Shown here in pieces: positions 1 to 31,414 of a DNA stretch of 64,000 nt. How positions within the stretch are numbered: the stretch's first letter is position 1; every line of letters starts with the position of its first letter. This DNA comes from Abyssibacter profundi (GTDB lineage Bacteria; Pseudomonadota; Gammaproteobacteria; Nevskiales; OUC007): assembly GCF_003151135.1 (NCBI RefSeq), contig NZ_QEQK01000013.1, forward strand, positions 1-64,000, given 5' to 3'. The notes beneath the pieces are model-generated. The model was not told the DNA's origin and did not search any database. It was given only the letters and a program-made list of their open reading frames with translations. The position numbers were made by a program, and so were the translations under genes.

Positions 1-997
1 TCGCCCAGCTCGCCCAGGCGATCCGAGCCAGCTTGTTGGCCACGGCACAGGCCGCTTTGTTGTGATTGGATCGCGCCTGCACGCCCAGCGCCCAGTGCTG
101 GAGCGGGCTCAGGGGTCTGCCCGCGTTCTGGTTGCGCCTAGCACTGAGTAAAACCGTTCTCGCTCCGTGGATAAGCAGCGTTCTGACGTACTTGTCGCCA
201 CGCTTGCTAATCCCGCCCAGGTGTCGCTTAGAGCCGCTTGAATGCTCTTTTGGCGTCAGCCCCAGCCACGAAGCGAGGTGCCGCCCTGACTGGAAGTGCT
301 TGGGATCACCGGCACTGGCGTATAGCGCGGTGGATGTGAGCAGCCCGATTCCTGGTATTTGTTGCAGCAATCGCACGGCCGGCGTCTGGCGTGCCACGAC
401 AGCGAGCTGGCGCTCGACACGGGCGATCTTGTCATCCAGGTCGTGCACCTCGGCCAGCAGCTCTAGCAGAGTGATCTTCAGCAGGTCAGGGACGGCTGGA
501 TCGTCAATGGCGGCGGCCATCTGTTTGACCGCGACTTTTGCACCGAGTGGCAAGATGACACCAAACTCGCGCAACAGCCCGCGCAGTGTATTGATGCGAG
601 CGGTGCGGCTACCCATCCATGCAGACCGGGCGCGATGCAGACCCTGGATGGCCTGGGCATCCACCTCTTTGACGGGCACTGACAGAATCTCGGGATTGCG
701 ATCGGCTTCGAGCATCGCCATGCAATCCGCCCGATCGGTCTTATTGCGACGGCGATAAGCGCGAACGTAGGGCACAGGGAGCAAGCGCACATCGTGACCG
801 TGCGCGAGCATCAACCGAGCCCAATGGTGGGCCCCTCCGCAGGCCTCCATGACAAACCGACTGCGTGGTCGCTGAACGATAAAGGCCTGAAATTCAGACC
901 GTTTCAGACGGTGATTTTCGACAACGCGACGCCCGTCGGACACCACCAGCTCAAAGATCAGTTTTGCCGTATCCACGGCAATCGTCGTAGATTGCAT
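1..997 (-). CDS. IS110/IS1111-family transposase (C-terminus beyond left edge)
   Basis: This ORF starts at ATG 997-995 behind a strong AAGGAG Shine-Dalgarno sequence and stays open to the window edge, giving 332 residues of a family that is usually about 340 long. The DEDD RuvC-like domain is readable: D9 in AVDTAK, E51 in FVMEACGG, and D88/D91 in KTDRAD. The C-terminal Transposase_20 domain follows, with ASWLGLTPKEHSSGSKRHLGG around the expected catalytic serine and then a KRGDKYVRTLL stretch, which is the IS1111-group pattern. Only the last few residues are missing. The gene looks intact, so the element may be active. It mobilises DNA by RNA-guided recombination in this family. Confidence 0.9.
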   Translation of the reverse strand, partial: MQSTTIAVDTAKLIFELVVSDGRRVVENHRLKRSEFQAFIVQRPRSRFVMEACGGAHHWARLMLAHGHDVRLLPVPYVRAYRRRNKTDRADCMAMLEADRNPEILSVPVKEVDAQAIQGLHRARSAWMGSRTARINTLRGLLREFGVILPLGAKVAVKQMAAAIDDPAVPDLLKITLLELLAEVHDLDDKIARVERQLAVVARQTPAVRLLQQIPGIGLLTSTALYASAGDPKHFQSGRHLASWLGLTPKEHSSGSKRHLGGISKRGDKYVRTLLIHGARTVLLSARRNQNAGRPLSPLQHWALGVQARSNHNKAACAVANKLARIAWASWA

Positions 998-1088
998 GCT
1001 CGGACTCCTTCTGTCGGTGTAGCTCGTGATTCAGAAACACCAGCTTGGCACACAGATGCCGGTAAAACGGCGGGAGGAGTCCATTCCA
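1..1088 (-). mobile_element. IS110-family (IS1111-type) insertion sequence, truncated by the left edge
   Basis: The transposase gene points left. Upstream of its start, about 90 bases lead to a motif GGGAGGAGTCC at 1072-1082, which reads as a subterminal inverted repeat typical of IS1111-type ends. The bases right after it (from about 1088) look like the interior of an integron attC site. I therefore place the right-hand boundary near 1088; the other end lies outside the window. IS1111-type elements carry their non-coding guide (seek/bridge) RNA downstream of the transposase, so that RNA should also lie outside the window. The exact boundary is an inference. Confidence 0.7.
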
Positions 1089-1186
1089 TCAATGCATCCG
1101 ACACTTTTTCCGCTACGCCTGCGGCTTCGCTCCAAAAGCGCCCTTCGGGCGGCCCTGCGGGCTGCGGCTGATGGGCGGCGTTGGGC
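1089..1186 (+). other. attC remnant interrupted by the IS element
   Basis: The right half is clear: GGCTGATGGGCGGCGTTGGGC ends in the core GTTGGGC at 1180-1186. The middle contains the usual long variable hairpin region (about 1110-1165). The left part begins with CAATGCATCCGAC, comparable to AACAATGCCTTGCAGCC in the next attC. The expected RYYYAAC core directly to its left is replaced by the end of the IS, so the insertion appears to lie just after the AAC of the first core. Confidence 0.65.
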
Positions 1187-1198
1187 GTCAGCAAGAAC

Positions 1199-1783
1199 AT
1201 GATTCGGTTAATTATCAGTGCGTTGATAGTTGTTGTCGGGCTCGTATTAGGTATTTTGGCCGCTATAAACGGAAAACCGGTGGTCTCGCTGGCACTTCTG
1301 ATGGCCGCACTATACTGCGCAGCCGGAACACTAATTGGTTTCTATGCAGTGTTTGATAGTCCAATTTGGTCGATCGTTGCCTTTGTAGTCATGTTGGCAG
1401 GTATCGCCGGTGTGTTCGTGTATCACCAGGCATTTAATCTTGATCTCCAAGCAGCCTATGCAGAGGCCTTAACCGACATGATCTCTGCAGATCCGCTGTG
1501 TGAGGACAAACCTGCCGACTTTTATCGGATGAAGGAGTTTGGAGTTTTCGCCTGTGCCACGCAGGCGAATCGCGATCAACTGTCGTCGCTCCGTGATATT
1601 GCAAAAGCTCGCTATTTTGGTCCTGAACTGACTGTGCTTGATGGGGTGTACGAATCTAAGAGCAAACAGGAACGGAACTACTGCGCTGAAGCATTCGCTC
1701 AGCTTCAGGAAAGGTGTCCCAATGCCTTCCAATTTATGAATCAAAAACACCGCAGCGCGCTCATGGCAGCGGCCACCGATTGA
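1199..1783 (+). CDS. Cassette-encoded membrane protein of unknown function
   Basis: The predicted product has 194 residues. I use ATG 1199; an in-frame TTG at 1181 lies inside the attC core and is less likely. The first 75 residues form about three hydrophobic segments (near residues 2-22, 27-47 and 51-72). A soluble C-terminal half follows, with cysteines at DPLCEDK, GVFACAT, RNYCAEA and QERCPN that could form disulfides if it is periplasmic. I do not recognise the family. The gene fills one cassette, begins 19 bases after the recombination point and stops just before the following attC. Cassettes rarely carry their own promoter, so expression may depend on upstream transcription. Confidence 0.7.
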   Translation: MIRLIISALIVVVGLVLGILAAINGKPVVSLALLMAALYCAAGTLIGFYAVFDSPIWSIVAFVVMLAGIAGVFVYHQAFNLDLQAAYAEALTDMISADPLCEDKPADFYRMKEFGVFACATQANRDQLSSLRDIAKARYFGPELTVLDGVYESKSKQERNYCAEAFAQLQERCPNAFQFMNQKHRSALMAAATD

Positions 1784-1784
1784 C

Positions 1785-1872
1785 GTCCAACAATGCCTTG
1801 CAGCCGACCCATTTTCCACTACTTCCCTTCGGTCATTCGCTCCAAATGGGCGGCTGAAGGCAGGCGTTAGGC
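1785..1872 (+). other. attC recombination site (88 bp)
   Basis: The site runs from core GTCCAAC (1785-1791) to core GTTAGGC (1866-1872). The internal arms pair well: TGCCTTGCAGCCGACCCATTT on the left against AAATGGGCGGCTGAAGGCA on the right, with an unpaired extra base as expected for bottom-strand attC recognition. The centre holds a short TTCGGTCATTCGCTCC variable loop. Confidence 0.85.
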
Positions 1873-1882
1873 GGTAAATGAA

Positions 1883-2302
1883 ATGATTGATTCCGTGTAC
1901 ACGTCCAAGATTGATACTTGGCTGCTCGTGGTTTTGCTCGTCAGTGCGGGTGTGGCACTGGTTGCTGCCGGCGCAACGCTCGTAACGAAGTCTGTATTTG
2001 CCATCGCTATTGGTGCATTCATTGCTGCCATCGGAGCAGGCCTGCCTGTCTGGCTACTCACGTCAACCAAATACACCATAGGCAGCGAAAGACTTCTTGT
2101 CCAAAGCGGGCCATTCAAATGGAAGGTCCCGCTCAGCGAAATTTCATCGGTCGAGCCAACGCGCAATCCACTTTCGAGCCCGGCACTGTCGCTTGATCGC
2201 CTTCACATCAAGTACGGCCGCGGTCAGGAATTAATGATCTCGCCAAAGGATCAACCGGCCTTCATCGAAGAGTTAGAGCGAGCCAGAGAAGATGCCGCCT
2301 AA
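1883..2302 (+). CDS. Cassette-encoded PH-domain membrane protein (bPH_4-like)
   Basis: The predicted product has 139 residues. Two transmembrane segments (about residues 12-32 and 38-57) are followed by a compact beta-rich domain: STKYTIGSERLLVQSGPFKWKVPLSEISSVEPTRNP, LDRLHIKYGRGQELMISPKDQPAFIEEL. The pattern of YTI...LLV.SG, I..V..T..P and a final SP.D...F...L fits the bacterial PH domain (DUF1200/bPH_4) found in small membrane proteins of unknown role. ATG 1883 is preceded by an out-of-phase ATG-AAA-TGA at 1878. The stop codon TAA at 2300-2302 overlaps the first core of the next attC, as is common in cassettes. Confidence 0.8.
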   Translation: MIDSVYTSKIDTWLLVVLLVSAGVALVAAGATLVTKSVFAIAIGAFIAAIGAGLPVWLLTSTKYTIGSERLLVQSGPFKWKVPLSEISSVEPTRNPLSSPALSLDRLHIKYGRGQELMISPKDQPAFIEELERAREDAA

Positions 2303-2383
2303 CATCGCCATGGAGAGGGGCATATTTTCCGTTACGCGCTTCGCGCTCCACTCCAAATATGTCCCTCATGGCGGGCGTTATGT
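2297..2383 (+). other. attC recombination site (87 bp)
   Basis: The site runs from core GCCTAAC (2297-2303) to core GTTATGT (2377-2383). The arms CGCCATGGAGAGGGGCATATTT and AAATATGTCCCTCATGGCG pair along most of their length. The last core departs from the strict GTTRRRY consensus in one position, but its exact partner ACATAAC is present at the end of the following cassette. Confidence 0.82.
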
Positions 2384-2466
2384 GCTTTCCGCTAGCTCCG
2401 GAGCTTCGCGTCCGAGCGTCTTAGCGGTAGAGTAAGGTCTGTGTTCTGGATTGCCTGAGAATCGCC

Positions 2467-2706
2467 ATGGCCGCTTCCGCTGACGCTATTGAAAACGACG
2501 CACTTTCTCTCCCGATTGAAGATCGTGCGCGGCTCATTGTCCATCTCCTGGAAAGCATTGAGGAGCGCCCCGGCGGCGATCCCCGGGCAGTCGAACGCGC
2601 TTGGCTAGCCGAAGCTCAACGCCGCTACGACGCGTATCAACGCGGAGAAGTTCAGGCGATTCCAGCCGCGGACGTGTTCTCGGAACTTCGGAAAGATGAT
2701 CATTGA
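2467..2706 (+). CDS. Addiction-module antitoxin (Unstab_antitox family)
   Basis: The predicted product is a 79-residue acidic, helical protein. The motif LSLPIEDRARLIVHLLESIEE is the hallmark N-terminal helix of the putative addiction-module (Unstab_antitox) component, followed by AWLAEAQRRYDAYQRGEVQAIPAADVFSELR. This matches antitoxins that pair with RelE/ParE toxins. It should bind and neutralise the downstream product and repress the shared promoter. The 83 bases between the attC core and the ATG contain GC-rich inverted sequence (GCTAGCTCCGGAGC) that may hold the module's own promoter/operator. Its stop overlaps the toxin start (TTGA), indicating translational coupling. Confidence 0.85.
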   Translation: MAASADAIENDALSLPIEDRARLIVHLLESIEERPGGDPRAVERAWLAEAQRRYDAYQRGEVQAIPAADVFSELRKDDH

Positions 2707-3002
2707 AGGCAATCAGCTTCTTGCCAGCTGCGCGCGAGGATATCCGGCGCGAGAAGTCCTACTACCGGAAAATCAATCCCGAACTCGCACGCCAATTCCA
2801 AGCAGCGGTTGAGACCGCAGCCAATGGCGCCGCTGAGAACCCCCAAGCGATGCAAGTACTGGAGCACGAAATCCGTCGCTGGCCGCTCACGACCTTCCCG
2901 CACGGCTTGCTCTATCGCGATGAACCGGATTCGGTTCTTGTTCTCGCGGTGTTTCATCCCAGCCAATCACCCGTTCGGTGGCAAGGTCGGTCGCGCACAT
3001 AA
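2703..3002 (+). CDS. RelE/ParE-family toxin in an integron cassette
   Basis: The predicted product has 99 residues and starts at TTG 2703, overlapping the antitoxin stop by 4 bases. The fold signature is clear: ISFLPAAREDIRREKSYYRKINPELARQFQAAVETAANGAAENPQAMQVLEHEIRRWPLTTFPHGLLYRDEPDSVLVLAVFHPSQSPVRW. The central FPHGLLYR and the terminal VLAVFHPSQSP.RW are typical ParE/RelE elements. Toxins of this group either inhibit gyrase (ParE) or cleave mRNA on ribosomes (RelE); sequence alone does not settle which. The stop codon overlaps the ACATAAC core. Such modules are thought to stabilise large cassette arrays. Confidence 0.87.
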   Translation: MKAISFLPAAREDIRREKSYYRKINPELARQFQAAVETAANGAAENPQAMQVLEHEIRRWPLTTFPHGLLYRDEPDSVLVLAVFHPSQSPVRWQGRSRT

Positions 3003-3003
3003 C
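2995..3003 (+). other. First core of a truncated attC
   Basis: GCACATAAC is the exact reverse complement of the GTTATGTGC that opens this cassette at 2377. No matching second half follows. From about 3004 the sequence leads into a decayed IS110-family transposase end, so this attC was interrupted at the same place as the first one. Confidence 0.7.
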
Positions 3004-3031
3004 AAGTGACTATGGTCGGAAGTCAATAAAT

Positions 3032-3118
3032 TCAGGCCAAATCTGGATTCCAATGCTGCCCGGTTTTCATCCTCACATTGATAATCGTGATGAGCTTTTG
3101 CATTTCGGCGAGTCGTTG
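3032..3118 (-). pseudogene. Decayed C-terminal remnant of an IS110-family transposase
   Basis: Read leftward, this stretch encodes 28 residues ending at a TGA at 3034-3032: QRLAEMQ, KLITIINVRMK, TGQHWNPDLA. This resembles the last residues of many IS110/IS116-type transposases (KLLTILNAMVKTGQHW...). Upstream of it the frame is broken and I cannot follow the rest of the protein. The remnant has the same orientation as the intact element at 1-997 and abuts an attC core in the same way. The match is to a conserved tail only. Confidence 0.6.
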
Positions 3119-3684
3119 AGCAGGGCATAGGCCAGCAACGTCCGACTCCGCTCACGCTGCTTAGCAAGCCTTTCTTCTCTAACCACCCAGGGAGTGTCGC
3201 AGTGGTGTTGCCAAACGCCTCGTGATGCGAAGGATTGCCGTGGCCAGCTGCTTGGTGTGTCCACGCAGACTGAGGTGAAGCGGCTTGGGCAGGATGCGGG
3301 ATCGTTTGTTGTCGCTAAAGCTTGATCAGCACCAGCCGATAACGTCCTTGGATCCGCATGCACGGGGGCCGACATGGCCTGCACCGACGTCTTTCTCTTT
3401 CACACGCAAACCAGCTATTTGATCGTGGTCGACGATGACCCCGATGCACTGGAGCGCGCACTTCTTGTCGGGCCGCTTCGCCCGCTCAACGGCGGCGAGC
3501 CCGTACCCGAAGGCTTGGCGTTGGAACTGCTGTATTTGTTCGGGGGCGTACGTGTGGAATCGGGTGATGCTTATGTCATCCCACCGATTGATCACACCGC
3601 TTCCAGAGCTGTGATCGCTCAGGAGGCGGTCACGGCGCTACCGCGATCTAGCGATACGCCGGCCACAACCGCGTTTCGCCTGCA
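3119..3684. other. Stretch without a recognisable gene
   Basis: About 560 bases between the IS remnant and a dispersed repeat. Short ORFs exist on both strands (3374-3688 rightward, 3326-3595 leftward) but neither has a recognisable domain or convincing ribosome binding site. A leftward stretch with RGHTKQLATAILRITRRL near 3200-3280 looks protein-like but is interrupted. The likeliest reading is debris of mobile elements. Confidence 0.5.
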
Positions 3685-3730
3685 CTAGCGCAACACTGAC
3701 CGACTCGCGCCGCCAAGTTGCTGCCTGCGA
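3685..3730 (+). repeat. Dispersed repeat, divergent copy 1 of 3
   Basis: CTAG...CACTGA...TCGCGCCGCCAAGTTGCTGCCTGCGA matches the copies at 21721 and 24010. The right half (GCCGCCAAGTTGCTGCC) is identical, and the left part differs at several positions. The final AACAGGCCAGGCA block of the other copies is absent. Confidence 0.65.
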
Positions 3731-4356: not shown

Positions 4357-5871
4357 TTAGGCTGCCTGGGTGGCGGCCTTGGCCGGCGACTCGGTACGGC
4401 TCGGCTGGGCAAGAAACCGCATCGTGCCGTCATCCAGCTTGGTGAAGCGCGTCACTGCCAGATCCATCACGTAGTTCTGATGCACACGCCACGGCGCCCG
4501 GGTGCCCTGCTGGGGGAGGAAATCCTTGGCGCGCTGGATATAACCGGATTCCAGATCGACCATATCGTCGGCTTCCACGCCCTCGCGGCGTTCGGGGATG
4601 CAGACGGCCTCGCCCCGTTTGTCCATCCGCTGAAGCAGCCGGCAGACGTACTGGGCCGTCAGGTCACATTTAAGCGTCCATGATGCATTGGTGTACCCAA
4701 AGGCAAAGGCCATGTTCGGGACGCCATCGAGCATCATGCCTTTGTAGATCAGCCGCTCACCGGTTTCGACCGGCTGGCCGTCCAGGCTGAGCGTCGCCCC
4801 GCCAAACAACTGAATGTTCAGGCCGGTGGCTGTGACGATGATGTCGGCCTCGAGCAGTTCTCCGCCACGGGTGCGCACGCCTTCGGCTTCAAAGCGTTCG
4901 ATGTGGTCGGTCACGATGTTCGCGTTCCCCTTGCGCAGGGCACGGAACAAATCGCCATTCGGCGCGATGCAAAGACGCTGATCCCAGGGCTTGTAGCTTG
5001 GGTTGAAATGCAGATCGGCATCGACCGCATCACCCAGCTGCTGACGGGCGAAGTGCAGAATTTTTTCCCGCGTGCTGTCCGGCTTGCGCCGCGCGTACTG
5101 GTAGAAATACATGCTGAGCAAGATGTTCTTCCAACGGGTCAGCGAGCCCGCCATGCGCTGCGGCAGCAGCTGTCGCAACTTGCCGGCGATGGCATCACGG
5201 CGCGGCAGATTGACCACGTAGGTCGGCGATCGCTGCAACATGGTGACCTGGGCGCCGTTCTTGACCAGCGACGGGATGAGCGTGATGGCGGTGGCGCCAC
5301 TGCCAATCACAACGATGCGTTTGCCGGCAACGTCCAAATCCTCCGGCCAGTGCTGCGGGTGCACGATGGTTCCGTCGAAGGCCTCGCGGTTGGCGAACGA
5401 CGGCGTGTAGCCGGAGGCATAGTCGTAGTAGCCGGAGCAGACATGCAGAAAACGGCAGCTGAACCGCTGCTCGCCGCCTGCGGTCTGGCATGTCACCAAC
5501 CAGCGCGCCTGTTCGCTATTCCAATCTGCACTGGTGACTCGATGACCGAAGCGGATCTGGCGATCAATCCCGTACTTGGCCGCCGTGTCCTGGATGTACT
5601 GGCGAATGGTGTCGCCGTCGGCAATGCTGACGTCGCTATCCCAGGGTTCGAAAGGAAAGCCCAGCGTGCTCATGTCCGAATCTGAACGGATGCCGGGGTA
5701 GCGGAACAAATCCCAGGTGCCACCGATGGCATCGCGCGCCTCGACGATGGTGTAGGTCTTGTCAGGGCACTCGGTTTGCAGCCGGTAGGCGGCATCCACG
5801 CCGGACAGGCCGGCGCCAACGATCAGGACATCGATGTCGATGGCCTCGGGCCGTGCAGCATCAAACGCCAT
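4357..5871 (-). CDS. Flavin-containing Baeyer-Villiger monooxygenase, EthA-like
   Basis: The predicted product has 504 residues and should be a cytosolic FAD- and NADPH-dependent enzyme that inserts oxygen next to a carbonyl (ketone to ester). Visible motifs are the FAD Rossmann site DVLIVGAGLSG (residues 14-24), the GGTWDLFRYPGIRSD block, the type I Baeyer-Villiger fingerprint FxGxxxHxxxWP (FDGTIVHPQHWP, residues 165-176), and the NADPH site VVIGSGATA (187-195). The whole chain resembles mycobacterial EthA, including RSPTYVVNLP, PWDQRLC and YTNASWTLK. It overlaps the upstream SDR gene by 11 bases and has an AGGAGG ribosome binding site inside it, so the two are co-transcribed. The natural substrate is unknown; a cyclic or long-chain ketone is likely. 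Confidence 0.93.
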   Translation of the reverse strand: MAFDAARPEAIDIDVLIVGAGLSGVDAAYRLQTECPDKTYTIVEARDAIGGTWDLFRYPGIRSDSDMSTLGFPFEPWDSDVSIADGDTIRQYIQDTAAKYGIDRQIRFGHRVTSADWNSEQARWLVTCQTAGGEQRFSCRFLHVCSGYYDYASGYTPSFANREAFDGTIVHPQHWPEDLDVAGKRIVVIGSGATAITLIPSLVKNGAQVTMLQRSPTYVVNLPRRDAIAGKLRQLLPQRMAGSLTRWKNILLSMYFYQYARRKPDSTREKILHFARQQLGDAVDADLHFNPSYKPWDQRLCIAPNGDLFRALRKGNANIVTDHIERFEAEGVRTRGGELLEADIIVTATGLNIQLFGGATLSLDGQPVETGERLIYKGMMLDGVPNMAFAFGYTNASWTLKCDLTAQYVCRLLQRMDKRGEAVCIPERREGVEADDMVDLESGYIQRAKDFLPQQGTRAPWRVHQNYVMDLAVTRFTKLDDGTMRFLAQPSRTESPAKAATQAA

Positions 5872-6733
5872 GGGTGGCCTCCTGCGTCGCGGTGGCCTGT
5901 TTGCCGCGCGGGTAGCGCTTGAGGATCAGCGCCTGATAACCCGCGCCCAGCACACGGGCGAACTTGTCGAGCAACTTGGCGTCGGGGCCGACGAGGATGC
6001 GCCGCGCATCGCGCTGAACACCCTTGAGAATGATCTGTGCGGCCTTGGTCGGCGTGGTGGTCTGGATGGCCTTCTCCGACCGACGCTTGTGGGCGTCAAT
6101 CGAGGCACCCGTCAGCCCTTCAATGGCGGCATCCACGCGACCGGAGCTGGCGATCTGCGTCGCCACACCGCCCGGATGCACACAGGACACGCTCACCGGC
6201 GCGCCTTCCATCTCCAGTTCCATGCGCAGGGTTTCGGTGTACCCGCGCACGGCAAACTTGGCGGCGCAGTAACTGGCCTGCGTGGGCATGCCAATCAGCC
6301 CGAACAGGCTGGACAGGTTGACCAGATGGCCTTCGCCCGAGGCACGCAGATGCGGCAGGAACGCCTGGGTGCCGTACACCACACCCCAGAAATTAATGTC
6401 CATCAGCCATTCGAAGTCGGCCTGGCTGGTGGTTTCGGCCGGAGCCGCCAACGCCACCCCAGCATTGTTGAACAGCAGATTCACGCGGCCATGGTCGGCC
6501 ACCACCTGATCGGCCCAGGCATACACGGCTTCGCGGTCGGCGACGTCCAGCACCGTGGTCGTGACCTTCACGCCCTGCGCCGTGGCCTGGTCAGCCGTGG
6601 TCTTGAGACCAGTTTCGCTGATGTCGCTCAAGGCCAGATCACAGCCTGCCGCGGCCAGCTCCATGGCCAACGCGCGGCCAATGCCTGATCCGGCGCCGGT
6701 GATGGCCGCAACCTTATTTGCAAACTGCTTCAT
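5861..6733 (-). CDS. Short-chain dehydrogenase/reductase
   Basis: The predicted product has 290 residues from ATG 6733; an upstream in-frame start at 6796 would run through the operator. NAD(P)-binding motif ITGAGSGIGRA near the N-terminus, NNAG at about residue 87, catalytic Ser in LSSLFG and the YxxxK pair in SYCAAK identify a classical SDR. The C-terminal 60 residues (KAAQIILKGVQRDARRILVG) match SDRs that sit beside Baeyer-Villiger monooxygenases. It probably oxidises an alcohol to the ketone that the monooxygenase then uses, or reverses that step. It is the first gene of the leftward operon controlled by the divergent TetR gene. Confidence 0.9.
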   Translation of the reverse strand: MKQFANKVAAITGAGSGIGRALAMELAAAGCDLALSDISETGLKTTADQATAQGVKVTTTVLDVADREAVYAWADQVVADHGRVNLLFNNAGVALAAPAETTSQADFEWLMDINFWGVVYGTQAFLPHLRASGEGHLVNLSSLFGLIGMPTQASYCAAKFAVRGYTETLRMELEMEGAPVSVSCVHPGGVATQIASSGRVDAAIEGLTGASIDAHKRRSEKAIQTTTPTKAAQIILKGVQRDARRILVGPDAKLLDKFARVLGAGYQALILKRYPRGKQATATQEATHGV

Positions 6734-6747
6734 GTGATCTGAACCTG

Positions 6748-6771
6748 AAGTGATGACGAGTGTCGTCACTT
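6748..6771. promoter_or_regulatory. Palindromic TetR-type operator
   Basis: Two half-sites, AAGTGATGACGA and TGTCGTCACTT, form a near-perfect 24-base palindrome in the gap between the divergent SDR and TetR genes. An extra half-site TGTCGTCA lies at 6788-6795, at the start of the TetR gene. The position suits autoregulation and repression of the SDR-monooxygenase operon. Confidence 0.75.
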
Positions 6772-21212: not shown

Positions 21213-21724
21213 ACTCGCTAACGGCCGTGCAGGCCGACATCACGACCCTGGCCGTGGACGCCATCGTCAATGCCGCCAACCAATCGCTGCTGGGCGGTGG
21301 CGGTGTCGATGGTGCCATCCACCGCGCGGCCGGACCCGAATTGCTCGAGGCCTGCCGCAAGCTGGGTGGCTGCGAAACCGGTCAGGCGAAGATCACAGCC
21401 GGCTACAACCTGCCGGCCCGCTGGGTCATCCACACGGTCGGCCCGGTCTGGACAGGCGGTTCGGCTGGTGAGGCCGAACAGCTCGCGCAGTGCTATCGCC
21501 ACTCACTGGCGCTGGCCGCCGAACACGCCGTGCGGTCCATCGCCTTTCCGGCGATTTCCTGCGGAGTGTACGGCTACCCCGTCGACACAGCGCTACCCAT
21601 CGCCGTGCGCGAGTGCAACGCCTGGCTTGCCGAGCAGGCACAGCCCAGCCAGATCCAACTGGTTGGCCTGGATGCGACCATGGCCAGCCGGCTGGCGGAC
21701 GCTATCCAACAAGCGGCTGACTAG
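21209..21724 (+). CDS. ymdB: O-acetyl-ADP-ribose deacetylase, macrodomain protein
   Basis: The predicted product has 171 residues from GTG 21209, a single macrodomain. Diagnostic motifs are [55 protein letters not shown] and [19 protein letters not shown]. The asparagine and [10 protein letters not shown] loop bind ADP-ribose. YmdB-type enzymes remove the acetyl group of O-acetyl-ADP-ribose and can reverse ADP-ribosylation; in E. coli YmdB also modulates RNase III. The pairing with a flavodoxin is translational (4-base overlap). Length is normal. The gene ends inside the dispersed repeat at 21721. Confidence 0.93.
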
Positions 21725-21778
21725 GGAAGCACTGATCTATTCGCGCCGCCAAGTTGCTGCCTGCGAACAGGCCAGGCA
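21721..21778 (+). repeat. Dispersed 58-bp repeat, copy 2 of 3
   Basis: This copy begins at the ymdB stop codon: CTAGGGAAGCAC...TATTCGC...CCGCCAAGTTGCTGCCTGC...AACAGGCCAGGCA. It is identical to the copy at 24010 at 53 of 58 positions. It contains a CAGGC/GCCTG inverted motif around the AACAGG block (GCTGCCTGC...GGCCAGGC). Confidence 0.85.
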
Positions 21779-29674: not shown

Positions 29675-30073
29675 CTTTCTCAATCTCGTGAAGGTGCCCG
29701 GGGCGGGCGAAAGGGCGCGGATAGTACTGAAAAATAGGCCCTTGCATCAAGCAACCTGGCTGTGGATAACTACGCTGGCACAGTTCCCGGTCGCGTTCGG
29801 ACTCGTATGTCGCTTCGGCATGCGGATCATCACTGTCGTCTGGCCCCCGCTCCGGGACGCCTTCGGACCCCCAGCAACATCCCTTGGTGACCCGGGGGGT
29901 GGTCCCTGTTCAGTCCGGCGCCCGGGGTCTCGAAGGACCTATTGCCAGCGCAGCGATGTGCTTGCGCTCGGGCTCAACGGGCCGGTGGCTGCTTGCAAGA
30001 ATGAGCTCTTGTTCGGACCATCCACTGGCGGGTCCGATCGCCCGATATTTCTACGACGACGCAGGTGTCTCTG
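29675..30073. promoter_or_regulatory. rpmH-dnaA intergenic region with a consensus DnaA box
   Basis: About 400 bases between divergent rpmH and dnaA. TGTGGATAA at 29761-29769 is a perfect DnaA box (reverse complement of TTATCCACA). It lies about 300 bases upstream of dnaA and 90 bases upstream of rpmH, so it may serve dnaA autoregulation or be an accessory origin site. No further consensus box is visible here, and no ORF in this gap looks genuine. Confidence 0.7.
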
Positions 30074-31414
30074 GTGGATTCAAACGCGCTCTGGCAGCGC
30101 TGTCTCGAACGTCTCGAATCCGTGCTCTCCGAATCGGATGTCGGCACCTGGGTGCGGCCGCTGCACGCCCATGCTGACAACGGCAACCTGGAACTCATCG
30201 CACCGAACCGGCCGGTGATGGAGAACGTCAAGGCGCAGTACCTTGCCACCATAAGTGCGGTGTGGAGCGAGGTCGTGGATTTAGAGAGTCCGCGCGTCAC
30301 GGTTCGCGTGGGTTCATCCGAACCAACCGCCCCCGCACCGGAGCCTGCAGAGCCCCGGCGAGCGGCGGCGCCCAAGACGGACTCCACCCATAGCAGTAGT
30401 CGGCTCGATCCGCGTTACACCTTTGACCGTTTTGTGGAAGGCAAGAGCAACCAGATTGCCCGCGCCGCGGCTCAGAAGGTCGCCGAATCACCGGGCACGT
30501 CTTACAACCCGTTGCTGATCTACGGTGGGACCGGCCTCGGGAAGACCCACCTGATGCACAGCGTTGGGAATCTGCTCTCCGCCCAGCGGGGGGCCAATCG
30601 GGTTGTGTACATCCCGGCCGAGCGCTTTGTGAATGACATGGTGCTGGCGGTGAGACATAACCGGATGGATGGCTTCAAAAACTTCTACCGGACGGCCGAA
30701 GCGCTGCTCATCGACGACATCCATTTTTTTGCAGGCAAGGAGCGGTCCCAGGAAGAGTTCTTCCACACGTTCAACTCACTGCTCGAAGCCAATCGTCAGA
30801 TCATCCTGACCTGCGACCGCTATCCCGCAGAGTTGGATGCCCTGGATGACCGCTTGCAGAACCGCTTTTCCTGGGGGCTATCCGTCGCCGTCGATCCCCC
30901 CGAGCTTGAAACGCGGGTCGCCATCCTGATGAGCAAGGCAGAGCAACTGGGTGCAGCCGTCCCAGAACCCGTCGCGTTCTTTATTGCCAACCGCATCCGC
31001 TCCAATGTCCGCGAGCTGGAGGGGGCACTGAATCGCCTGGTTCATACCGCCCAGTTCACCGGTACGAACATCGACATCGATTTCGCTCGTTATGCACTGC
31101 AGGACATCTTGTCGGTGCACGACCGCATGGTCACGATCGAGAGCATCCAGCGCACCGTCGCCGAGTATTTCAGCATCCGTCTGTCTGATATGACGCAACG
31201 CAGTCGTCGTCGCTCCATCGCCCGGCCACGACAAATGGCCATGGCGCTGTCCAAGGAGCTCACGACCCACAGCCTGCCCGAAATCGGCGACGCCTTCGGT
31301 GGTCGGGATCACACCACGGTCCTGCACGCCTGCCGCACGATTCAGAAGCTCAAGGATGCCGATCGCGCCATACGTGACGACTATGAGGCCCTGTTGAGAA
31401 CCCTGAGCCGTTGA
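30074..31414 (+). CDS. dnaA: Chromosomal replication initiator DnaA
   Basis: The predicted product has 446 residues from GTG 30074, which has an AGG element eight bases upstream; GTG 30065, three codons earlier, is the alternative. Domain I (LWQRCLERLESVLSESDVGTWVRPL), a variable Pro/Ala-rich linker (about residues 85-105), the AAA+ domain with YNPLLIYGGTGLGKTHLMH (Walker A), ALLIDDIHFFAGK (Walker B) and DRLQNRFSWGL (sensor/box VII region), and domain IV with RSRRRSIARPRQMAMAL and the DnaA-box-recognition signature GGRDHTTVLHACRTI. It melts oriC and loads the helicase. oriC-like sequence follows immediately downstream. Confidence 0.97.
   Translation: MDSNALWQRCLERLESVLSESDVGTWVRPLHAHADNGNLELIAPNRPVMENVKAQYLATISAVWSEVVDLESPRVTVRVGSSEPTAPAPEPAEPRRAAAPKTDSTHSSSRLDPRYTFDRFVEGKSNQIARAAAQKVAESPGTSYNPLLIYGGTGLGKTHLMHSVGNLLSAQRGANRVVYIPAERFVNDMVLAVRHNRMDGFKNFYRTAEALLIDDIHFFAGKERSQEEFFHTFNSLLEANRQIILTCDRYPAELDALDDRLQNRFSWGLSVAVDPPELETRVAILMSKAEQLGAAVPEPVAFFIANRIRSNVRELEGALNRLVHTAQFTGTNIDIDFARYALQDILSVHDRMVTIESIQRTVAEYFSIRLSDMTQRSRRRSIARPRQMAMALSKELTTHSLPEIGDAFGGRDHTTVLHACRTIQKLKDADRAIRDDYEALLRTLSR

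What the first reader, a model, noticed from the sequence alone, without database searches (positions are those of the whole stretch)
1089..3003. A chromosomal integron cassette array whose borders prove themselves
Three consecutive segments start and end with sequences complementary to each other over 9-11 bases, which is what circular cassettes cut by an integron integrase leave behind. The two intact attC sites fold with long paired arms. The cargo (membrane protein, PH-domain protein, toxin-antitoxin) is typical of sedentary integrons, yet no integrase is in view. It lies only 28 kb from the replication origin.
Basis: partly seen in the sequence, partly recalled or inferred. Interest (0 to 1): 0.8.

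Follow-up and report, generated by a model that had tools for sequence, protein, structure and literature searches.

The report
Integron cassettes bounded by attC-targeting transposons
The stretch is a real piece of a chromosomal integron (a bacterial gene-collecting array) with three gene cassettes, and both ends are cut at the recombination site by transposons whose own non-coding DNA carries a copy of that site; one of these belongs to a transposon group for which I found no report of this target.

Summary
A covariance model built from 14 attC sites of this genome hits 1785-1872 (E 1e-19) and 2297-2383 (1e-18), plus a damaged attC ending at 1186. Cassettes are 1180-1791, 1866-2303 and 2377-3003. 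In 17 cassettes of the genome, each end is complementary to its own start (9.5 bases versus 4.3 in mismatched pairs). As an integron it is ordinary. "No integrase" reflects the contig starting at window base 1: an intact IntI lies on another contig, and the array probably continues through an IS into a contig with an attI-like site and an IntI remnant.

What stands out is the borders. The left attC is cut by an IS1111-attC element (closest named relative ISPa25, a known attC targeter). The right attC is cut at its R'' box by a remnant of an IS110-type IS (non-coding region upstream of the transposase). Its relatives form a supported clade: 17/17 examined copies, plus 4/4 found later by guide motif, sit in R'' boxes; 13 other IS110s do not. 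Candidate guide segments match attC and covary with the IS end. I found no report of attC targeting for the IS110 type.

The parts
1..1090 (-). IS1111-attC insertion sequence, transposase-proximal part: transposase 2-997 (346 aa in all, rest on contig C21), sub-terminal inverted repeat 1070-1083, 7-bp left extension 1084-1090
   Evidence: PF02371/PF01548; 147-bp exact overlap with C21:1-147; end GATGGAATGGACTCCTCCCGC identical to ISPa25; 53% aa identity to ISPa25
1091..1186 (+). attC site whose 5' (R'') end was replaced by the IS1111 element; R' box 1180-1186
   Evidence: R1 hit 33 bits, E 1e-6; sequence
1180..1791 (+). cassette 1, ORF 1199-1783 (194 aa, hydrophobic N-terminus, no family)
   Evidence: start/end complementarity 10/12
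1785..1872 (+). intact attC
   Evidence: R1 80 bits, E 1.2e-19
1866..2303 (+). cassette 2, ORF 1883-2302 (bacterial PH domain, bPH_4)
2297..2383 (+). intact attC
   Evidence: R1 76.3 bits, E 1.3e-18
2377..3003 (+). cassette 3: type II toxin-antitoxin pair, antitoxin 2467-2706, ParE-type toxin 2703-3002
   Evidence: PF09720, PF05016, TIGR02574; border match 9 bases
2997..3005 (+). R'' box (ACATAAC) plus CAA core of a fourth attC; the rest is lost to the IS110 insertion
   Evidence: same junction at C5:350321 (95% over 66 bp) and C21:~1650; sequence
3003..3103 (-). remnant of an IS110-type attC-targeting IS: right end (CAAGTGACTATGGTC...) and last ~25 codons of its transposase
   Evidence: 79% identical to C21:1552-1653; translation MQKLITIINVRMKTGQHWNPDLA*
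4357..6748 (-). flanking chromosomal genes (FMO-like monooxygenase, SDR) conserved next to a decayed attC region in same-genus genome G002
30065..31414 (+). dnaA (origin region, 27-29 kb from the array)

Best explanation
Window 1089-3003 is part of a sedentary chromosomal integron: three circularisable cassettes joined by attC sites that an integron integrase recombines as folded bottom strands. It is cut off from integrase and attI only by an insertion and a contig break; read through the IS1111 element, the array runs on into contig C21 towards an attI-like site and an IntI remnant, and an intact IntI elsewhere in the genome could act on it in trans. Both edges are attC sites hit by RNA-guided transposons of the IS110 superfamily. 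On the left is an IS1111-attC element (guide in the region downstream of its transposase). On the right is a remnant of an IS110-type element (guide upstream) that inserts at the R'' box, core TTG/CAA. Shown here: array anatomy, insertion points, the clade of attC-targeting IS110s, guide-to-site matches and covariation. Inferred: transcription of the guides, transposition, recombination in trans, and the C21-C13 join.
For: attC hits at the stated sites and covariation; cassette border test; IntI on C19 and remnants on C12 and C21. C21/C13 share an exact 147-bp IS overlap found in no other contig and keep attC orientation. IS1111: ends and attC-side flank identical or nearly so to ISPa25, which sits antisense between a cassette and the 3'-conserved segment of a class 1 integron; T segment TAACAAATC followed by B segment GTTGCAGCG, the order reported for IS1111 (PMC11187229). 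IS110: 17/17 clade members with the guide motif CCG-N-TAACAA have TTGTTA(G/T) (R'' complement) at the right end, 13 other IS110s have neither; clade support 100/99. Guide/right-end pairing at two positions 29/34, 0 of 50,000 permutations; left guide versus left flank p 2e-5. Held-out test: 4/4 copies found by guide motif in viral contigs sit in R'' boxes and pair at both positions. Joined flanks re-form attC-like hairpins, 245 arm pairs against a shuffle maximum of 104.
Against: The C21-C13 join rests on one overlap in a draft assembly. One clade member, L216, has the guide but no R'' at its right end. Exact-match statistics for the own IS110 guide alone are modest (10 of 300 shuffles as good). 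Guide covariation at position 1 is mostly one event on the tree; position 2 changed several times, but the L199 group has a T:T mismatch there. The two halves left around the IS1111 do not rejoin to an attC of exact spacing (2 bases extra).
Confidence: 0.85

Rival explanations
1. The array is a true orphan (CALIN): a cassette cluster that lost its integrase and attI and is now an inert relic, and the IntI on C19 belongs to an unrelated integron.
For: No IntI in the window. IntI copies next to the type-2 attI-like sites are N-terminal remnants only. The outer attC sites are broken. In G002 the same locus holds attC sites that score poorly.
Against: The two inner attC sites are intact and score like those beside the intact IntI on C19, and cassette borders are still matched. 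IntI can act in trans on attC sites (established knowledge of integrons).
Confidence: 0.3
2. The IS elements sit at attC sites by chance or because any hairpin attracts them; the guide matches are coincidental.
For: attC sites are hairpins, and group IIC introns and IS1111 elements both favour them; the own IS110 guide match alone is not strong.
Against: Same base position in R'' in 21/21 copies across several families; guide motif present in all of these and in none of 13 comparison IS110s; guide and IS end covary.
Confidence: 0.05
3. The repeats are not attC but another inverted repeat (terminator or REP) between unrelated genes.
For: The genome does have a dispersed REP-like repeat.
Against: R''/L''/L'/R' order, conserved RYYYAAC...GTTRRRY, extra-helical bases, own start/end matching and IntI in the genome.
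Confidence: 0.01

Closest known systems
Sedentary chromosomal integrons / CALINs (e.g. Xanthomonas integrons, PMC12444791; IntegronFinder classes)
   Same: attC arrays with small, mostly unknown or TA cassettes, single IntI, decayed IntI copies, place in the chromosome kept between relatives
   Different: At least six array fragments over contigs C2, C5, C12, C13, C19 and C21, with two kinds of attI-like site; several array ends are IS110-superfamily insertions
IS1111-attC group (ISPa25, ISKpn4, ISPst6; Tetu and Holmes 2008, Post and Hall 2009, Siddiquee 2024)
   Same: Left IS: same sub-terminal repeats and 7/3 extensions, NCR downstream of tnp, same attC flank, antisense to cassettes, T-then-B guide order
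   Different: Only 53% aa identity to ISPa25; guide letters differ and fit this genome's attC (TGCAACGATT) instead of ISPa25's
IS110-type IS with upstream seekRNA/bridge RNA (ISEc21, IS621)
   Same: Right IS and its clade: DEDD transposase ~316 aa, long left non-coding end, short right end, B-then-T guide order, no long sub-terminal repeats
   Different: Target is the attC R'' box; ISEc21 targets an IS3-type transposase gene (PMC11187229). I found no report of an IS110-type attC targeter

Membership tests
Integron cassette array | attC sites with R''/R' boxes and paired L''/L' arms | tested here: met
   80 and 76 bits, 84.8% paired cells, 65 both-side changes
Integron cassette array | each cassette's end and start derive from one circle (complementary borders) | tested here: met
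   9.5 vs 4.25 bases, 0 of 20,000 permutations
Complete integron | intI and attI adjacent to the array | tested here: inconclusive
   not on the contig (starts at window 1); intact intI on C19; attI-like site and IntI remnant on C21, which probably joins
Integron cassette array | integrase-mediated excision or insertion | not testable with these tools
   needs bench assay
IS1111-attC group | IS1111-type transposase, sub-terminal inverted repeats with 7/3-bp extensions, NCR downstream of tnp | tested here: met
   ISPa25 53% aa
IS1111-attC group | inserted at one end of an attC site, antisense to the cassettes | tested here: met
   own C21/C13, remnants at C2 and C5
IS1111-attC group | seekRNA with T match 5' of B match | tested here: met
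   sequence only: TAACAAATC then GTTGCAGCG; 51 nt covered by matches, 0 of 300 shuffles; the RNA itself is not testable here
IS110 type (upstream seekRNA/bridge RNA) | long NCR upstream of tnp, short right end, DEDD plus Transposase_20 | tested here: met
   (P0001)
IS110 type (upstream seekRNA/bridge RNA) | B match 5' of T match | tested here: met
   AAACGATTGG then TTAACAAGTG
IS110 type (upstream seekRNA/bridge RNA) | RNA bound to transposase and needed for movement | not testable with these tools
   bench

The most novel reading that the evidence does not exclude
A clade of IS110-type transposons, found in this genome, other gammaproteobacteria, and plasmids of Vibrionaceae and Pseudoalteromonas, is dedicated to integron attC R'' boxes through an upstream guide RNA. 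It parallels the downstream-guide IS1111-attC group, so RNA-guided parasitism of integrons arose in both branches of the superfamily, and such insertions cap and split cassette arrays.
Probability: 0.65. Interest if true: 0.6.

Novelty: new variant of a known kind. Interest (0 to 1): 0.47.

Why it matters
The array itself adds one more sedentary integron. The border elements matter more: they indicate that both branches of the bridge-RNA/seekRNA transposon superfamily have settled on attC sites, with guides that resemble the attC sites of their host. That gives natural guide-target pairs for learning how these RNAs read DNA, and a simple mechanism for how cassettes become fixed, since an IS in R'' destroys the recombination site and freezes the neighbouring cassette. 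It may also explain why some 'orphan' arrays in draft genomes end at transposases: the IS sits exactly at the cassette border and can break the assembly there.

Tried and rejected
Rfam has no match at gathering level in the window (I recall no attC family there), so a model was built from the genome's own sites. The genome-contig scan with IntI did not name the organism; its best relatives reach 54-58% IntI identity in Pseudomonadales, Ketobacter, Kistimonas and an unclassified gammaproteobacterium. The single-protein search of IMG/VR with the IS110 transposase found nothing; a guide-motif scan did, but most of its loci carry no such transposase downstream and were not used. Considered and rejected: terminator or REP repeats; an array on a plasmid (it is on the dnaA contig). 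For the IS1111 guide I first read both segments as matching one strand; the second pairs with the other strand if two G-U pairs are allowed, which restores the reported T/B order. This is a reading by eye, not a computed result.

Full report
Check of the observation. The window is the start of contig C13 (92,232 bases) of a 3.74-Mb gammaproteobacterial genome in 47 contigs. I collected 14 candidate attC sites of this genome by their R''/R' boxes and arm pairing, aligned them and tested the hairpin: 84.8% of cells pair, against 33-38% for slid arms; 65 cells change on both sides against 28 in shuffles. The covariance model built from them hits the two predicted sites at exactly the predicted coordinates with E 1e-19 and 1e-18, and the damaged site ending at 1186 with E 1e-6, which was not in the training set; the next hit in the window is at 16 bits. 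The two intact sites were in the training set, so the independent weight lies on the pairing test and the border test. In the whole genome the model gives 17 hits, nearly all in array fragments on contigs C2, C5, C13, C19 and C21.

Cassette borders. In 17 cassettes of seven array fragments, the first bases after R' and the last bases up to R'' of the same cassette are complementary over 9.5 bases on average, against 4.25 when cassettes are crossed; no permutation of 20,000 reached the observed value. For the window: cassette 1 (1180-1791) 10 of 12 with one early mismatch, cassette 2 (1866-2303) 9 in a row, cassette 3 (2377-3003) 9 in a row.

Surroundings. The FMO/SDR gene pair to the right (4357-6748) is present in two same-genus genomes. 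In G002 a region with degenerate attC sites and a cassette-type toxin-antitoxin pair lies directly beside it in the same orientation; in G001 other genes lie there. The place is therefore probably an old integron locus in at least two species.

The missing integrase. One full IntI (TIGR02249, 462 bits; cut-off 265) lies on C19, with an attI-like end and two cassettes before the contig breaks at an IS. N-terminal IntI remnants stand beside a second kind of attI-like sequence on C12 and C21, and two more attI-like copies without IntI are on C5. C13 starts inside an IS1111 transposase; its first 147 bases occur elsewhere only as the reverse complement of C21:1-147. Joining the two completes one 346-aa transposase and keeps all attC sites in one orientation, from the attI-like site on C21 through cassettes, IS110, IS1111 and then the window's cassettes. 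This join is inferred.

Left border. The IS1111 element ends at 1090; 1070-1083 is its sub-terminal repeat. Its left end (GATGGAATGGACTCCTCCCGC) is identical to that of ISPa25, its closest named relative (53% aa), and its right end with flank (GGAGGAGTCCATATACGATTTGT) differs at one base; ISPa25 there lies antisense between an OXA cassette and the 3'-conserved segment of a class 1 integron. ISPa25, ISKpn4 and ISPst6 are known attC targeters, and for ISKpn4 and ISPst6 a guide RNA from the region downstream of the transposase was shown, with the top-strand match 5' of the bottom-strand match (PMC11187229). The element here carries TAACAAATC followed by GTTGCAGCG around a small hairpin in the same region; both are exact 9-mers of this genome's attC arms, and matches cover 51 nt against none of 300 shuffles. 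Two further remnants of this right end abut attC halves on C2 and C5.

Right border. At 3003 the attC stops after ACATAACAA and continues into GTGACTATGGTC..., the right end and last ~25 codons of an IS110-type transposase. The same junction is on C5:350321 behind a 2.1-kb cassette whose first gene reads as a C5-type DNA methyltransferase, and at a full copy on C21 (transposase P0001, C21:673-1623) with a long upstream and a short downstream non-coding end. That full copy sits in an R'' box with TTG (CAA) at both junctions.

A clade of attC-targeting IS110s. I took relatives of P0001 from class-wide genomes and from plasmids. Seventeen elements (this genome, five other gammaproteobacterial families, eleven Vibrionaceae/Pseudoalteromonas plasmid copies) carry CCG-N-TAACAA in the left non-coding end, and all 17 have TTGTTA(G/T), the R'' complement, directly at the right end. 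Thirteen other IS110s, most of them 42-48% identical to P0001, have neither. The carriers form a clade with support 100/99 (L214, a disrupted copy, was left out of the tree); the one member inside it without the flank, L216, keeps the guide but has lost its right end. Many neighbours on the plasmids are typical cassette genes antisense to the IS, and the attC model from this genome finds antisense attC sites in seven of the 16 non-self loci at E below 0.01 (L199, L202, L205, L207, L209, L212, L214; L215 also, at 0.001, making eight). Joining the two flanks re-forms attC-like hairpins: 245 arm pairs in 18 sites against at most 104 in shuffles; 11 of 18 sites have 12 or more pairs by the listing, and some sites failed because the left flank could not be placed.

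Guide evidence. The two bases after TAACAA pair with the two last IS bases before the core in 29 of 34 cases, 0 of 50,000 permutations; position 1 is 17/17, though on the tree this is mostly one change, while position 2 changed several times. The left guide segment resembles the left flank of its own insertion more than those of others (p 2e-5; p 0.015 within the six non-plasmid elements). The order left-flank match then TAACAA match is the one reported for the IS110 type. As a held-out test I scanned viral contigs for the motif; of 23 loci four carry an IS110 transposase downstream, all four end at TTGTTA(G/T), and all pair at both positions.

Mechanism and limits. Shown: anatomy, positions, clade, matches, covariation. 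From established knowledge: integrase recombines folded bottom-strand attC; IS110-superfamily transposases use a two-segment guide RNA (PMC11187229, PMC11208160). Inferred: that these guides are transcribed and used, that the C19 integrase serves this array, that the IS insertions freeze the outer cassettes. Literature: full-text searches found attC targeting only for IS1111 elements; a Shewanella survey lists five IS110 insertions in arrays but reports none in attC. Most subscription papers are not held, so novelty of the IS110 clade is probable, not certain.

Noticed in passing
window 3684-3728 and 21720-21766: Dispersed REP-like repeat (about CACTGACYGRYTCGCGCCGCCAAGTTGCTGCCTGC) with more than 20 further copies over the genome and copies in same-genus genomes; a copy also lies near the IntI remnants on C12 and C21.
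   Followed up: partly
L054 3170-5387 (C5:348169-350386): Single large cassette of 2.1 kb, first gene reading as a C5-type DNA methyltransferase and a second ORF after it (possible restriction-modification pair), between an orphan attI-like site and an attC cut by the same IS110 type; no IntI beside it.
   Followed up: partly
L021 4914-4972, L020 9112-9178, L029 10203-10268; L019 12930-12985, L030 6490-6545, L054 3158-3213: Two families of attI-like sequences (three copies each) in one genome with a single intact IntI; several have no integrase gene next to them. How they spread is unexplained.
   Followed up: partly
L031 7990-8232, L020 8286-8526, L076, L062: A ~240-bp dispersed repeat at contig ends (C13 end, C25, C9) and inside C12 that breaks the assembly.
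   Followed up: no
L019 14120-14705 and L236 2180-2760: The same toxin-antitoxin cassette type occurs in the C19 array and in the decayed array of same-genus genome G002 at the locus syntenic with the window.
   Followed up: no
L022 1-160, ends of C12, C19 and C21: Sequences that read as IS30-type elements end several array fragments and probably link C2 with C12 or C21.
   Followed up: no
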